Virus record (IMG/VR): IMGVR_UViG_3300006853_000060
Coordinates: 1-25,183 of that record
DNA length: 25,183 bases
DNA from: a virus
Direction: 5' to 3' (one strand)
The first letter of the stretch is position 1. Each line of letters begins with the position of its first letter. Under the pieces are notes generated by a model. That model saw nothing but the letters and a program-made list of their open reading frames with translations. It was not told the origin of the DNA and did not search any database. A program made the position numbers and the translations under genes. This document shows, piece after piece, positions 1-3,223 of this stretch.

Positions 1-201
1 TGGTGGAAGCGTCGTTATGGGATCTGGCGGTTCGATAATGGGGTGTTTACTGAACCGACAATGCTTCTGAGCGCTGACACCGATACCTGGCCGCTCGGAA
101 TGAATGATTCTATAACGGTAATCGAAGGCGATAAGGACATTTATGGCCGGTGCTACATAGGCTTTAGAGGTCACGGTTCTATGTACTGTGATATCGTGTA
201 A
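1..201 (+). CDS. C-terminal end of an unknown protein (partial)
   Basis: An open frame runs from the left edge to a TAA at 199-201 and gives the last 66 residues of a protein whose start lies outside the window. The tail is rich in aromatic residues and glycine (WWKRRYG near the edge, GFRGHGSMYC near the end) and has the alternating look of beta strands; I recognise no family. Its GC content, counted by hand, is about 48%, clearly below the scaffold gene that follows. Portal or terminase is expected upstream of a scaffold gene, but this tail does not look like either, so it may be an extra gene inserted between portal and scaffold. It ends 11 nt before the promoter at 213. Confidence 0.7.
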   Translation, partial: WWKRRYGIWRFDNGVFTEPTMLLSADTDTWPLGMNDSITVIEGDKDIYGRCYIGFRGHGSMYCDIV

Positions 202-212
202 AGGCCGCCTAG

Positions 213-240
213 TTGACACTTTGCGCACCTTCGCTACACT
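213..240 (+). promoter_or_regulatory. sigma70-like promoter for the scaffold/capsid operon
   Basis: A perfect -35 hexamer TTGACA (213-218) is followed after 16 bp by TACACT (235-240), which matches TATAAT at 4 of 6 positions. Transcription would start near 247, giving a leader of about 85 nt before the scaffold ATG at 332. The site lies in the only sizeable intergenic gap of the virion module, which supports it. It implies recognition by host RNA polymerase. No transcription data are available. Confidence 0.6.
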
Positions 241-253
241 GGAACATCGACTT

Positions 254-316
254 GTCGCCGTAAGCGACTGATCCGATTGACGACCGTAAGTCGTCCCCGC
301 CTGGTGGCCGTAAGCC
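254..316 (+). promoter_or_regulatory. array of three CGTAA-loop hairpins in the scaffold leader
   Basis: Three short inverted repeats follow one another and share the same five-base loop CGTAA. The first is GTCGC/GCGAC (254-268), the second GACGAC/GTCGTC (279-295), the third GGC/GCC (306-316, weak, only 3 bp). Loops start at 259, 285 and 309, a spacing of 26 and 24 nt. The stems differ in sequence but stay complementary while the loop does not change, as expected for an RNA element read through its loop. The third hairpin ends 4 nt before the AAGGAG ribosome binding site (320-325 region) of the scaffold gene, so a bound factor could affect translation. Function is inferred only. Confidence 0.55.
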
Positions 317-331
317 CCGAAGGAGAAGTTC

Positions 332-1126
332 ATGAGCGACGTGCACGGAACTGAAGAGGCGCCCGATGTCGAGCAACCCGATTCCACAACCCAAAACGAT
401 ACCGGGACGGACGGAAACGAAGTCAGCACAGAGCTCGACGAGTCCAGCGATGCCGCCGGACAGCCTGACGGACAAGGCGCCGAAGACGTCGACGGACCCG
501 GCGCGGACGGCGTAGACGCCGCCGACGAAGAGCCGGAGCCGAAGCCTACCCGCGGCGCGCAGCGGATCGCGGCGCTTGCGGAGCGGACCAAGGCCGCCGA
601 AGAGCGGGCGGAGCGGGTCGAGCGGCAGCTGGCGGAGCTGACGCGGACCCGGAATGAGCAGCTGACGGAGCAGCAGGAGGCGGAGCGCCTCGCGCTGATG
701 ACGCCGGAAGAGCGGTCGGATTACAAGCTGGAGAAGGCCCGGCGCGAGTTCGACCAGAAACTGGGAATGGCGCATTTTCAGGCGCAGGATCAAGCGGATA
801 AGGTTGCTTTCTCGGCCAAAGTGTCAAGCAACCCCGTGTTCGCGAAGTACGAGTTGGAAGTTGAGCGGAGACTGGCGGAGCTGCGACAGGGCAATCCTTC
901 AAAGGGCATTCCTCCGCAGAACATTCCGCGGATCGAGATGCTCAAGTGGGTTATTGGCGATCGGGCGCTGGCGCAAGCCGGCGCGGGCGCCAAGGCGAAG
1001 GCTAAGGGGGCGGCACGGGTCGCTCAGCAGACGGTGGCTCCCGCGGGGGCCAAGAGTAACGCGGCTTCGCAGCGCGGCCGGCAGCAGGACTCGCCGGAGA
1101 AGCGTCTGGAAGGGGTTCCACTCTAG
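332..1126 (+). CDS. capsid scaffolding protein
   Basis: This 264-residue protein sits directly before the major capsid gene, the usual scaffold position. It shows the typical architecture: a very acidic, low-complexity N-terminus (about residues 1-70, rich in D, E and G), a charged coiled-coil section (about 75-145, heavy in E, R, A and Q), and a basic Ala/Lys-rich tail (about 220-264) that could bind the capsid shell. Scaffolds guide procapsid assembly and leave before or during DNA packaging. The ATG at 332 follows AAGGAG by 6-7 nt. Expression is probably driven by the promoter at 213-240 and may be modulated by the hairpin leader. The assignment rests on position and architecture, as scaffolds diverge too far for sequence recognition. 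Confidence 0.75.
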   Translation: MSDVHGTEEAPDVEQPDSTTQNDTGTDGNEVSTELDESSDAAGQPDGQGAEDVDGPGADGVDAADEEPEPKPTRGAQRIAALAERTKAAEERAERVERQLAELTRTRNEQLTEQQEAERLALMTPEERSDYKLEKARREFDQKLGMAHFQAQDQADKVAFSAKVSSNPVFAKYELEVERRLAELRQGNPSKGIPPQNIPRIEMLKWVIGDRALAQAGAGAKAKAKGAARVAQQTVAPAGAKSNAASQRGRQQDSPEKRLEGVPL

Positions 1127-1131
1127 GGTGT

Positions 1132-1146
1132 CGGCCGTAAAAGCCG
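1132..1146 (+). promoter_or_regulatory. fourth CGTAA-type hairpin, before the major capsid gene
   Basis: CGGC (1132-1135) and GCCG (1143-1146) can pair around a loop CGTAAAA. It belongs to the same family as the three hairpins at 254-316 but has a loop two bases longer. It lies in the 44-nt gap between the scaffold stop (1126) and the capsid start (1171), about 10 nt upstream of the AAGGAG ribosome binding site at 1156-1161. Its presence before both scaffold and capsid genes is the main reason to suspect regulation rather than chance. Confidence 0.45.
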
Positions 1147-1170
1147 TGCCCGTACAAGGAGATGACGAGC

Positions 1171-2514
1171 ATGGCCGTCAATCAGGCGTCCCAGTTTTCT
1201 GCCGATATTGAAGCATATATTGCGGACCAGACCCTCCCCCTGGCCCGTCGGCAGCTGGTGGTATACCAGTTTGGCGATCCTCTCGAGCTTCCCAAAGGCC
1301 GCGGCACCACTTATACCGCATCGCGGTATCAGCGTATCCCGCTACCCTTCGCACCCCTGAGCGAAGGCGTCCCGCCAGTCGGCGAGACGATGACGCTGGA
1401 GCAGGTGTCGGCCACTGCGCTGCAGTGGGGTGACAAGGTGACAATCACCGACGTCGCCGAGCTCACGATCAAGCATCCGCTCTTCAAGAAGGCCACGGAG
1501 CTTGTCGGCCTGCAGGTGGCGGAAACCTTGGAACGCAATACTTTCAACAACTTGCTTGGCGGAACGCAAGTCAATTACGTGAACTCGCGCGGTTCGCGCG
1601 GCGCGCTGATTGCTGGCGACGTCATGAACCCACACGAGGTTACACGGGCCTTCTCCCAGCTCGTGACGCTCGGCGCGCCTCGCTACATGGGCGACGAGAT
1701 GACGGACACCAAGCTGGCGGCGTCCGCCGGCGGCGCCAAGGCGTCGTCCAACCCGCGCACCCAGCCGCACTACGTTGCGGTGCTCCACCCCTTCGTCTCC
1801 AGCGACTTGCAGGAGAACAACACGATCGCGACGGCTTGGAGCCGCTCCGATATCAACCGGCTCTACAACTCGGAAGTCGGGGAGTGGAACAGCATCCGGT
1901 TCTGCGCTTCGAACATGGTGCCGGCGTTCGTCGGCGTTACCGCGATCGAGGGCTCTGCGACCACCGCGGGCTCACTCGCAACCGGCACTTACTACATTCA
2001 GGTCACCGCTTCCGACACGCAGAATCAGTACGAGACGCGCATCTACGGCGTATCGTCCGGCATCTCGGTTACCGGCCCGAACGGTTCCGTTGACGTGATC
2101 CTGCCCAGCGTGTCCGGCTACACTTTCAACGTTTACCTCTCGACCGATACCACGCCGGCCAACCTCGGTCTTTCCACGGCAGGGCCGACGTCGGGGCCGA
2201 TGCAGGGGCAGGCTACGCAGCTCACGGGTGGCCAGACCGTGACGATCACGGCGCTGGGTACGGCGCAGGTGCCGCCGGCGGCGCCGGCCAACGGCGTTAC
2301 CGTCTACCCCACGTTCGTCTTCGGTCGTGGCGCTTACGGGCAGGTCATGCTGGACAACGTGAAGTTCACGTACCTGAAGGAAGCCGACAAGTCCGATCCG
2401 CTCAATCAGCTCCGCGTGGTCGGGTGGAAGTGCTACTACGGCACGCTGATCGAGAACCAGACGTTCTTCATGCGGATCGAATCGACGTCGGCCTTCAACT
2501 CGACCTTCGGGTGA
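1171..2514 (+). CDS. major capsid protein, N4-gp56 family, with an inserted Ig-like domain
   Basis: The 447-residue product forms the icosahedral shell. Family features I recognise are the ETMTLEQVSATALQWG region (72-87), the block ending in ERNTFNNLLGGTQV (121-134), a PHYVAVLHP segment (199-207), and a C-terminal block around YPTFVFGRGAYG (379-390) and DPLNQLRVVGWKCYYG (409-424). Between about 256 and 376 lies an extra Thr/Gly/Ser-rich beta segment that interrupts the family pattern; it resembles Ig/fibronectin-like surface domains found on phage capsids. I prefer the ATG at 1171 over that at 1162, because AAGGAG (1156-1161) abuts 1162 but lies 9 nt before 1171. It follows the fourth hairpin and precedes small head-associated genes. 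Confidence 0.9.
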   Translation: MAVNQASQFSADIEAYIADQTLPLARRQLVVYQFGDPLELPKGRGTTYTASRYQRIPLPFAPLSEGVPPVGETMTLEQVSATALQWGDKVTITDVAELTIKHPLFKKATELVGLQVAETLERNTFNNLLGGTQVNYVNSRGSRGALIAGDVMNPHEVTRAFSQLVTLGAPRYMGDEMTDTKLAASAGGAKASSNPRTQPHYVAVLHPFVSSDLQENNTIATAWSRSDINRLYNSEVGEWNSIRFCASNMVPAFVGVTAIEGSATTAGSLATGTYYIQVTASDTQNQYETRIYGVSSGISVTGPNGSVDVILPSVSGYTFNVYLSTDTTPANLGLSTAGPTSGPMQGQATQLTGGQTVTITALGTAQVPPAAPANGVTVYPTFVFGRGAYGQVMLDNVKFTYLKEADKSDPLNQLRVVGWKCYYGTLIENQTFFMRIESTSAFNSTFG

Positions 2515-2517
2515 TCC

Positions 2518-2808
2518 ATGGCTCTGAAAGCGTTCGGCACCAATGCCACGACCACGCTGACATGCTTGCCGGCTTGGAACCCTGAAACGGCGATCGCGGA
2601 CATTGCCGCGATCGCGGCGCACATCCTCGACGACATCAACCCGGCACACCCCATTGTGCCGGGCGCCTTCGCACAGGGGCGCCTCGTCATTCCGAACCGG
2701 TTGTTCTTGCTTCTGAAGCCCGGCGACACCGTGGCTTATGACTCAACGGGATGGCCCATTCTCGTGAACGCTGCTTCACGCGCTGCCAACTGGACGACGG
2801 CGGCCTAA
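2518..2808 (+). CDS. small head-associated protein, unknown
   Basis: A 96-residue protein begins 3 nt after the capsid stop and is presumably translated from the same mRNA. It starts MALKAFGTNATTTL and carries a hydrophobic stretch with a VIPNRLFLLLKPGDTVAYD segment (about 66-84) that looks like a compact beta fold. Position immediately after the capsid gene fits a decoration, stabilising or head-completion protein, but I recognise no family. The ribosome binding site is weak (GGGTGA near 2510), consistent with coupling to the capsid gene. Confidence 0.65.
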   Translation: MALKAFGTNATTTLTCLPAWNPETAIADIAAIAAHILDDINPAHPIVPGAFAQGRLVIPNRLFLLLKPGDTVAYDSTGWPILVNAASRAANWTTAA

Positions 2809-2821
2809 CCAGGAGATCGCT

Positions 2822-3223
2822 ATGGCACCGCGCGGACGCCCCCCGGGTCGCCCCCGAACCAAGATTGACACATCGATGCTCTCGCCTGAGCGCGTTGAGG
2901 CATTGAAGAAGAAAGCCGCGGAGGCCGTCGCGAAGGAGACGGTTGAGCAGGCGGAAGCGCAACTGCTCGAGCAGTTCGTTCGCGAAGCTCGGCAGATGAC
3001 GGGGATCGACGAGCAGATCCGCACGATCACGCTCGACCTTGCACCGCATTCGGATCGCCTCGTGATCGACAACGTGGTGTATATGCACGGCTCCACCTAC
3101 GAAGTCGGCGAGAGCACGTACCGCTCCATGATGGAGATGATGCAACGAGGCTGGGAGCATCAGTCCGAGATCGACGGAAAGCCTAGGAACTACCACCGCA
3201 AAGCGCGTAATTTGCGCATCTAA
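2822..3223 (+). CDS. unknown protein with AT-hook-like N-terminus
   Basis: This 133-residue protein starts at ATG 2822 behind a clear AGGAG (about 2811-2815). The N-terminus (residues 2-14) is PRGRPPGRPR-like, containing two GRP cores as in AT-hook minor-groove binders. A charged helical section follows (about 20-60), then a segment with LVIDNVVYMHGSTYEVGES (about 80-98) and a basic C-terminus. Similar small proteins are often found just after phage capsid genes, without known role. DNA contact inside the head is one possible reading of the AT-hook-like motif; this is inference. Confidence 0.7.
   Translation: MAPRGRPPGRPRTKIDTSMLSPERVEALKKKAAEAVAKETVEQAEAQLLEQFVREARQMTGIDEQIRTITLDLAPHSDRLVIDNVVYMHGSTYEVGESTYRSMMEMMQRGWEHQSEIDGKPRNYHRKARNLRI

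What the first reader, a model, noticed from the sequence alone, without database searches (positions are those of the whole stretch)
254..1146. Family of CGTAA-loop hairpins in front of scaffold and capsid genes
Four inverted repeats (254-268, 279-295, 306-316, 1132-1146) sit only in the two gaps before scaffold and major capsid genes. Loops are CGTAA (three times) and CGTAAAA; stems differ in sequence (GTCGC/GCGAC, GACGAC/GTCGTC, GGC/GCC, CGGC/GCCG) but keep pairing. Changing stems with a fixed loop is the mark of an RNA recognised by its loop, and the 24-26 nt spacing suggests repeated binding sites. A protein or scaffold feedback on head-gene translation is one hypothesis; binding of DNA iterons by a regulator is another.
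Basis: partly seen in the sequence, partly recalled or inferred. Interest (0 to 1): 0.75.

Follow-up and report, generated by a model that had tools for sequence, protein, structure and literature searches.

The report
Tandem RNA hairpins before phage scaffold gene
An uncultured group of bacterial viruses puts one to three copies of the same small RNA hairpin (fixed loop and fixed 5' tag, ever-changing stem) between the promoter and the start of its head-scaffold gene, most likely as docking sites for a protein that regulates that messenger RNA; the RNA structure is firmly shown, the protein and the exact action are not.

Summary
The four hairpins exist exactly where stated, and they are the only ones of their kind in 25 kb (0 of 300 shuffles give as many). 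The three before the scaffold gene belong to a real, new RNA element. Its unit is CGACU, one spacer base, a 5-bp stem and a CGNNA loop (mostly CGUAA). Units repeat 1-3 times at a pitch of 23-27 nt. They fill the 5' leader from about +2 of a sigma-70-type promoter to just before the Shine-Dalgarno. A stem-blind tandem search of IMG/VR found 68 places, nearly all before the same phage group's scaffold and capsid genes. There 83 distinct units are 93% paired, against 37% in chance matches from bacterial genomes; all five stem positions show compensatory changes. The element is in 55 of 57 compared phages of the clade, at one place per genome, and absent from Rfam. The fourth hairpin (before the capsid gene) is not a member: relatives have unrelated loops there. 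Best explanation: a multi-site RNA operator at which a protein (a head protein is the favoured but untested candidate) regulates translation of scaffold mRNA. Rivals: nut/put-like antitermination, or 5'-end stabilisation. DNA iterons are disfavoured.

The parts
213..240 (+). Sigma-70-type promoter: TTGACA (213-218), 16 nt, TACACT (235-240)
   Evidence: 10 of 12 matches; the only promoter-like site in window 1-3000; a TTGAC -35 is found in 34 of 49 distinct relative leaders; the commonest distance from -10 to the first unit is 7 nt.
248..268 (+). Unit 1: CGACT (248-252), spacer T, stem GTCGC/GCGAC (254-258/264-268), loop CGTAA (259-263)
   Evidence: covariance model match 33.2 bits, E 9e-7; folds alone at -6.9 kcal/mol.
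274..295 (+). Unit 2: CGATT (274-278), stem GACGAC/GTCGTC (279-284/290-295), loop CGTAA (285-289)
   Evidence: -7.7 kcal/mol; 31.2 bits in the near-identical record G001 (L001); only its hairpin part (280-294, 12.5 bits) was reported on the window in that run.
298..318 (+). Unit 3 (next to the Shine-Dalgarno): CGCCT (298-302), stem GTGGC/GCCCC (304-308/314-318) with one mismatch or a bulged U, loop CGTAA (309-313)
   Evidence: 25.9 bits, E 7e-5. Irregular stems are commoner in the Shine-Dalgarno-proximal unit of relatives too.
320..325 (+). Shine-Dalgarno AAGGAG of the scaffold gene, directly after unit 3
   Evidence: Loop end to start codon is 18 nt here.
332..1126 (+). Scaffold protein gene (264 aa)
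   Evidence: phrog_172 head scaffolding protein, E 9e-4; PF14265 capsid assembly scaffolding, below the cut-off.
1126..1151 (+). Hairpin in the scaffold-capsid gap with CGTAAAA loop (core 1132-1146); NOT a member of the unit family
   Evidence: -13 kcal/mol; no model match; the position keeps a hairpin in many relatives, but loops differ.
1171..2514 (+). Major capsid protein gene; 1171 is the likelier start because relatives align from residue 4 of the 1162 ORF
   Evidence: phrog_1357 major head protein, E 2e-33.

Best explanation
The 5' leader of the scaffold mRNA is a multi-site RNA operator. Transcription starts about 7 nt after the -10 box, so the RNA begins almost at the first CGACU. Each unit folds into a short hairpin that shows a protein two constant surfaces: single-stranded CGACU on the 5' side and the CGNNA pentaloop; the stem only holds them at a fixed distance. 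The last unit ends within a few nucleotides of the Shine-Dalgarno, inside or at the edge of the ribosome's landing area, so a protein bound there, helped by copies on the upstream units, would regulate (most simply repress) translation of scaffold and indirectly of the genes behind it. SHOWN: the RNA element, its consensus, covariation, position, once-per-genome restriction and clade distribution. INFERRED: that a protein binds, that translation is the regulated step, and its sign. GUESSED: that the protein is a head protein (scaffold or capsid) giving autogenous feedback.
For: RNA element: stem-blind tandem pattern, 83 distinct viral units 93.3% paired versus 36.5% for chance hits of the same pattern in bacterial genomes; all five pairs change on both sides, covariation score 1.007 versus 0.301 shuffled (units with obvious mispairing were left out of that set, the set was not filtered by pairing). 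G.T 32 versus A.C 12 mismatches on the + strand. Placement: 89 hairpins in 9.4 kb of scaffold leaders versus 37 in about 1 Mb elsewhere, both strands; strong model hits only at this locus in the viral records searched, none in two of them. Geometry: first unit ~7 nt after -10, pitch 23-27, last loop end mostly 16-23 nt before the start codon. The initiating ribosome covers about -20 to +19 (PMC4347634). The unit next to the Shine-Dalgarno is the one kept when only one is present (L006, L008, L015, L018, L064). No phage gene other than the (diverged) scaffold shows the presence pattern expected of a dedicated accessory binder.
Against: No protein was shown to bind. Two clade members (L048, L067) lack the element, so it is dispensable there. 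The predicted whole-leader fold of the window mixes the hairpins with other pairings and is no more stable than shuffles. Only one operon per genome carries it, which does not separate translation from transcription control. The scaffold is diverged in both hairpin-less phages (rank 1 and 3 of 51), but their capsid is also diverged (rank 7 and 5), so the link is weak.
Confidence: 0.5

Rival explanations
1. Antitermination element (nut- or put-like): the nascent hairpins load a phage or host factor onto RNA polymerase so that it reads through the long late operon.
For: The first unit lies at the very start of the transcript and the order 'linear tag then hairpin with 5-nt loop' resembles boxA-boxB. 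HK022 put RNA sits just downstream of a promoter and has two stem-loops (PMC9378689).
Against: No boxA-like CGCTCTT in the window leader. Copy number varies from one to three, and single copies are the Shine-Dalgarno-proximal ones. Only one site per genome, on the head operon. put RNA is ~70 nt with two long irregular stems (PMC9378689).
Confidence: 0.22
2. 5'-end stabiliser or generic high-expression leader: hairpins near the 5' end protect an abundant mRNA from decay; loops are favoured for stability, no dedicated protein.
For: First hairpin within a few nt of the predicted 5' end; scaffold and capsid are abundantly made (general knowledge).
Against: Stability alone does not explain an invariant C, G and A in the loop with any closing pair, nor the CGACU kept 11 nt upstream; UUCG or GNRA tetraloops would serve better.
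Confidence: 0.15
3. Target of a base-pairing RNA (phage or host small RNA) that reads CGACU and the loops.
For: Two short constant sequences exposed as single strands.
Against: Tag and loop both tolerate variants (CGAGT, CGCCT; CGTTA, CGGAA), and no complementary partner was seen; it was not searched for systematically. Both-strand scans of whole records found no second clustered site.
Confidence: 0.07
4. DNA iterons for a transcription or replication protein.
For: Repeated at a regular pitch next to a promoter.
Against: Stems are rewritten while staying self-complementary, which a DNA site would not need; mismatches favour G.T over A.C on the transcribed strand (32 vs 12, p = 0.004; sequences are related, so the p value is approximate). 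Units keep the gene's orientation wherever the capsid gene was found downstream.
Confidence: 0.04

Closest known systems
Translational operator hairpins of RNA phages (MS2/R17 group, coat protein at the replicase start; PMC3561173)
   Same: A ~20-nt hairpin near a start codon of a phage gene, conserved in loop bases and structure; some units here have an irregularity (bulge or wobble) two pairs below the loop.
   Different: dsDNA phage; one to three tandem copies with a conserved single-stranded CGACU; lies upstream of the Shine-Dalgarno rather than around the start codon; binder unknown; different loop (CGNNA).
Lambda-type nut sites (boxA plus boxB, N peptide)
   Same: Linear element followed by a hairpin with a five-base loop in a phage leader transcript.
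   Different: No boxA sequence; the loop has an extra 5' C before G-N-N-A, an insertion site for which a survey of GNRA-like pentaloops found no example (PMC12550061); tandem copies; single head operon; no N-like protein identified.
HK022 put RNA (PMC9378689)
   Same: RNA structure just downstream of a promoter in a phage; two stem-loops.
   Different: put is ~70 nt with a defined two-stem fold that binds RNA polymerase directly; here 15-nt hairpins are repeated one to three times and adjoin a Shine-Dalgarno.
CsrA/RsmA target leaders (PMC4347634)
   Same: Regulator competes with the ribosome at the ribosome-binding site; some target RNAs carry many sites.
   Different: CsrA needs GGA (ACA and GGA invariant in its selected consensus); the loop here is CGNNA.

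Membership tests
Any family of Rfam 15 | Match to a curated covariance model | tested here: not met
   window 1-3000, E up to 10; one chance match (sR32, 15.4 bits, cut-off 40) at 1158-1180, not at the hairpins.
Lambda-type nut site | boxA sequence (CGCTCTT-like) upstream of boxB | tested here: not met
   no CGCTCTT in the leader 241-331; the constant tag is CGACT.
Lambda-type nut site | boxB hairpin with GNRA-like five-base loop bound by an N peptide | tested here: inconclusive
   Five-base loop present, but CGNNA would need an extra base before the G, not seen in known GNRA-like pentaloops (PMC12550061). No N-like protein was searched for specifically.
HK022 put RNA | ~70-nt RNA with two long stem-loops just downstream of the promoter | tested here: not met
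   units of ~22 nt, one to three copies; only the nearness to the promoter is shared.
CsrA/RsmA target | GGA in hairpin loops | tested here: not met
   loop C-G-N-N-A, mostly CGUAA; GGA occurs only in the Shine-Dalgarno and in the minority CGGAA loops.
RNA-phage coat-protein operator | Hairpin bound by coat protein, repressing translation | not testable with these tools
   Needs binding and reporter assays.
RNA-phage coat-protein operator | Hairpin around the replicase start codon of a levivirus | tested here: not met
   dsDNA tailed phage with scaffold and phage capsid annotation; hairpins lie before the Shine-Dalgarno of the scaffold gene.
Conserved structured RNA element (general kind) | Compensatory substitutions preserving a helix across homologous sites | tested here: met

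The most novel reading that the evidence does not exclude
A dsDNA phage head protein (scaffold or capsid) reads a tandem RNA operator in its own mRNA, so that free, unassembled protein shuts off further scaffold synthesis: an assembly-coupled translational feedback with a new RNA-protein recognition code (CGACU plus CGNNA loop).
Probability: 0.25. Interest if true: 0.88.

Novelty: new variant of a known kind. Interest (0 to 1): 0.7.

Why it matters
Feedback on scaffold synthesis after transcription was proposed decades ago for phage P22 (from memory; no held paper found), and its RNA target is, as far as I know, not defined. Here is a clear, testable cis-element in front of a scaffold gene, conserved across a whole clade of uncultured tailed phages. 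If a protein binds it, it yields a compact RNA-protein recognition pair and a model for how tailed phages set the scaffold to capsid balance.

Tried and rejected
Fourth hairpin as family member: rejected. DNA iterons: disfavoured. First impression that the two hairpin-less phages carry a non-homologous scaffold (tblastn): wrong; a profile shows homology at E 1e-33 to 1e-49, and the extra divergence is only weakly specific to scaffold. Idea that stems within one leader are kept mutually non-complementary: not supported, cross-pairing within leaders is slightly higher than shuffled. Complementarity of CGACU/CGUAA to 16S rRNA: considered from memory and dropped as a 5-base coincidence. First loose pattern in IMG/VR gave many chance hits, among them single hairpins in L095 and L174 that show no tandem array and no capsid match. 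Bacterial genomes: 56 of 57 tandem hits look like chance; the 57th (L269) carries the same phage capsid. Whole-leader folding is uninformative. Phage GenBank records: no leader match, and the nearest capsid relatives there lack it. Literature searches found no description of the element.

Full report
OBSERVATION. The four inverted repeats are real and are the only hairpins with a CGTAA or CGTAAAA loop and at least three Watson-Crick pairs on the + strand of the window; 300 dinucleotide shuffles average 0.25, none reaches four and none puts three within 70 nt. The word CGTAA itself occurs as often as expected. The window is a whole 25,183-base virus record of a tailed phage: scaffold gene (phrog_172, weak) at 332-1126 and major capsid gene (phrog_1357, E 2e-33) behind it. 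A TTGACA-16-TACACT promoter lies at 213-240, so the three scaffold-leader hairpins are in the 5' untranslated region.

RELATIVES. A capsid search of IMG/VR gave 80 loci (69-100% identity). Reading their scaffold leaders shows one to three tandem units in nearly all. Hairpins with loop CG[TG][AT]A and a stem of five or more number 89 in 9.4 kb of leaders but 13 elsewhere on the same strand and 24 on the other strand of 516 kb. The unit is CGACT-N-5 bp-CGNNA-5 bp; loop bases 3 and 4 are mostly T and A, with CGTTA and CGGAA as common variants.

IS IT RNA? On 69 units the five pairs are 97% standard, all five change on both sides, and the covariation score is 1.007 against 0.301 for shuffles and at most 0.18 for slid versions. 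That set was trimmed of badly paired units, so an unfiltered test was made: a pattern with only CGACT and CGKWA fixed, twice in tandem, blind to the stem. It finds 68 places in IMG/VR and 57 in the far larger set of bacterial and archaeal genomes. The 83 distinct units of the viral set (two chance places, L205 and L213, left out; the one real place in the genome set, L269, added) are 93.3% paired; the 96 units from the remaining chance matches are 36.5% paired. Of the viral places, all but six are followed, roughly 780-990 nt downstream and on the same strand, by a homologue of this capsid; two of the six are clearly chance (L205, L213), and four (L190, L215, L247, L254) look like real arrays but gave no capsid match in the stretch held. 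Non-Watson-Crick pairs are G.T 32 against A.C 12 on the + strand, as for RNA on that strand; eight of the twelve A.C cases lie at the second pair below the loop, where G.U is also common and where A.C can mimic G.U (inference). Sequences are related, so the p value (0.004) is approximate.

ANATOMY. In 49 distinct leaders the commonest distance from the -10 box to the first unit is 7 nt, that is, the RNA should begin within about two bases of CGACU; unit pitch is 23-27 nt with few exceptions; the last loop ends mostly 16-23 nt before the start codon (this automatic scan also picks up a few spurious units inside genes). Promoter, units and Shine-Dalgarno therefore abut. The Shine-Dalgarno-proximal unit is more often irregular (28 of 42 with a non-Watson-Crick position against 29 of 64 upstream units, p 0.046), a suggestive difference only. 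Where just one unit is present it is this one.

DISTRIBUTION. With the covariance model, strong hits in 30 viral records fall only at this locus; two records (those of L048 and L067) have none. 77 of 79 hits with E up to 1 in 57 loci lie in scaffold leaders. On a capsid tree the element is in 55 of 57 clade members, absent in L048 and L067 and in the outgroups L338 and MW202637; two losses are the simplest reading, but that part of the tree is poorly resolved. It reaches a member (L337) whose capsid is only 46% identical to that of L181. No GenBank phage matched, Rfam has no such family, and literature searches found none. The host is unknown; the only bacterial-genome occurrence is a 4-kb contig in an Eremiobacterota MAG that carries the phage capsid.

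MECHANISM. Constant tag and loop on a rewritten stem, in tandem, is what a protein-recognised RNA looks like; ending at the Shine-Dalgarno, within or at the edge of the -20 to +19 zone used by the initiating ribosome (PMC4347634), points to translation. I therefore favour a multi-site translational operator (0.5). A head protein as binder is attractive because only scaffold, among twelve compared genomes, came close to the presence pattern of a dedicated partner, but scaffold is in fact homologous throughout and merely among the most diverged in the hairpin-less phages; its C-terminus is basic, which coat binding could equally explain. Antitermination (0.22) and 5' stabilisation (0.15) remain open.

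FOURTH HAIRPIN. The scaffold-capsid gap of many relatives holds a 7-9 bp hairpin starting at the scaffold stop codon, with unrelated loops; others have none. The window's version is this gap hairpin with a loop that happens to contain CGTAA.

VERDICT. A genuine, apparently undescribed cis-acting RNA element of a phage clade; a new variant of the known kind 'hairpin operator or leader element', with its partner and sign of action still to be found.

Noticed in passing
Scaffold-capsid gap of L027, L032, L053, L054, L068, L077, L080 and others (window counterpart 1126-1170): In a subset of relatives three segments can form two exclusive hairpins: one at the scaffold stop codon (capsid Shine-Dalgarno free) or one that sequesters the capsid Shine-Dalgarno; a possible switch linking scaffold termination to capsid start. 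A rough energy scan flags 11 of 36 gaps.
   Followed up: partly
window 1162-1171: The capsid ORF is listed from ATG 1162, but relatives align from residue 4, so ATG 1171, nine bases after AAGGAG, is the likelier start.
   Followed up: partly
L034, L072, L337 scaffold leaders: Some units carry a single bulged A in the 5' arm two pairs below the loop (e.g. GTG-A-CC CGTAA GG-CAC), reminiscent of RNA-phage operators; many Shine-Dalgarno-proximal units have a wobble, mismatch or 3' bulge at the same level.
   Followed up: partly
L095, L111, L117, L174: Single CGACTAGCCCCCGTAAGGGGCTA hairpins without tandem copies in four other viral contigs, upstream of a different gene in L095 and L174; probably chance or another RNA element.
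   Followed up: no
L269 (PKZD01000054.1): A phage contig of this clade binned into an Eremiobacterota MAG (isolate palsa_1504); the only host hint, and a weak one.
   Followed up: no
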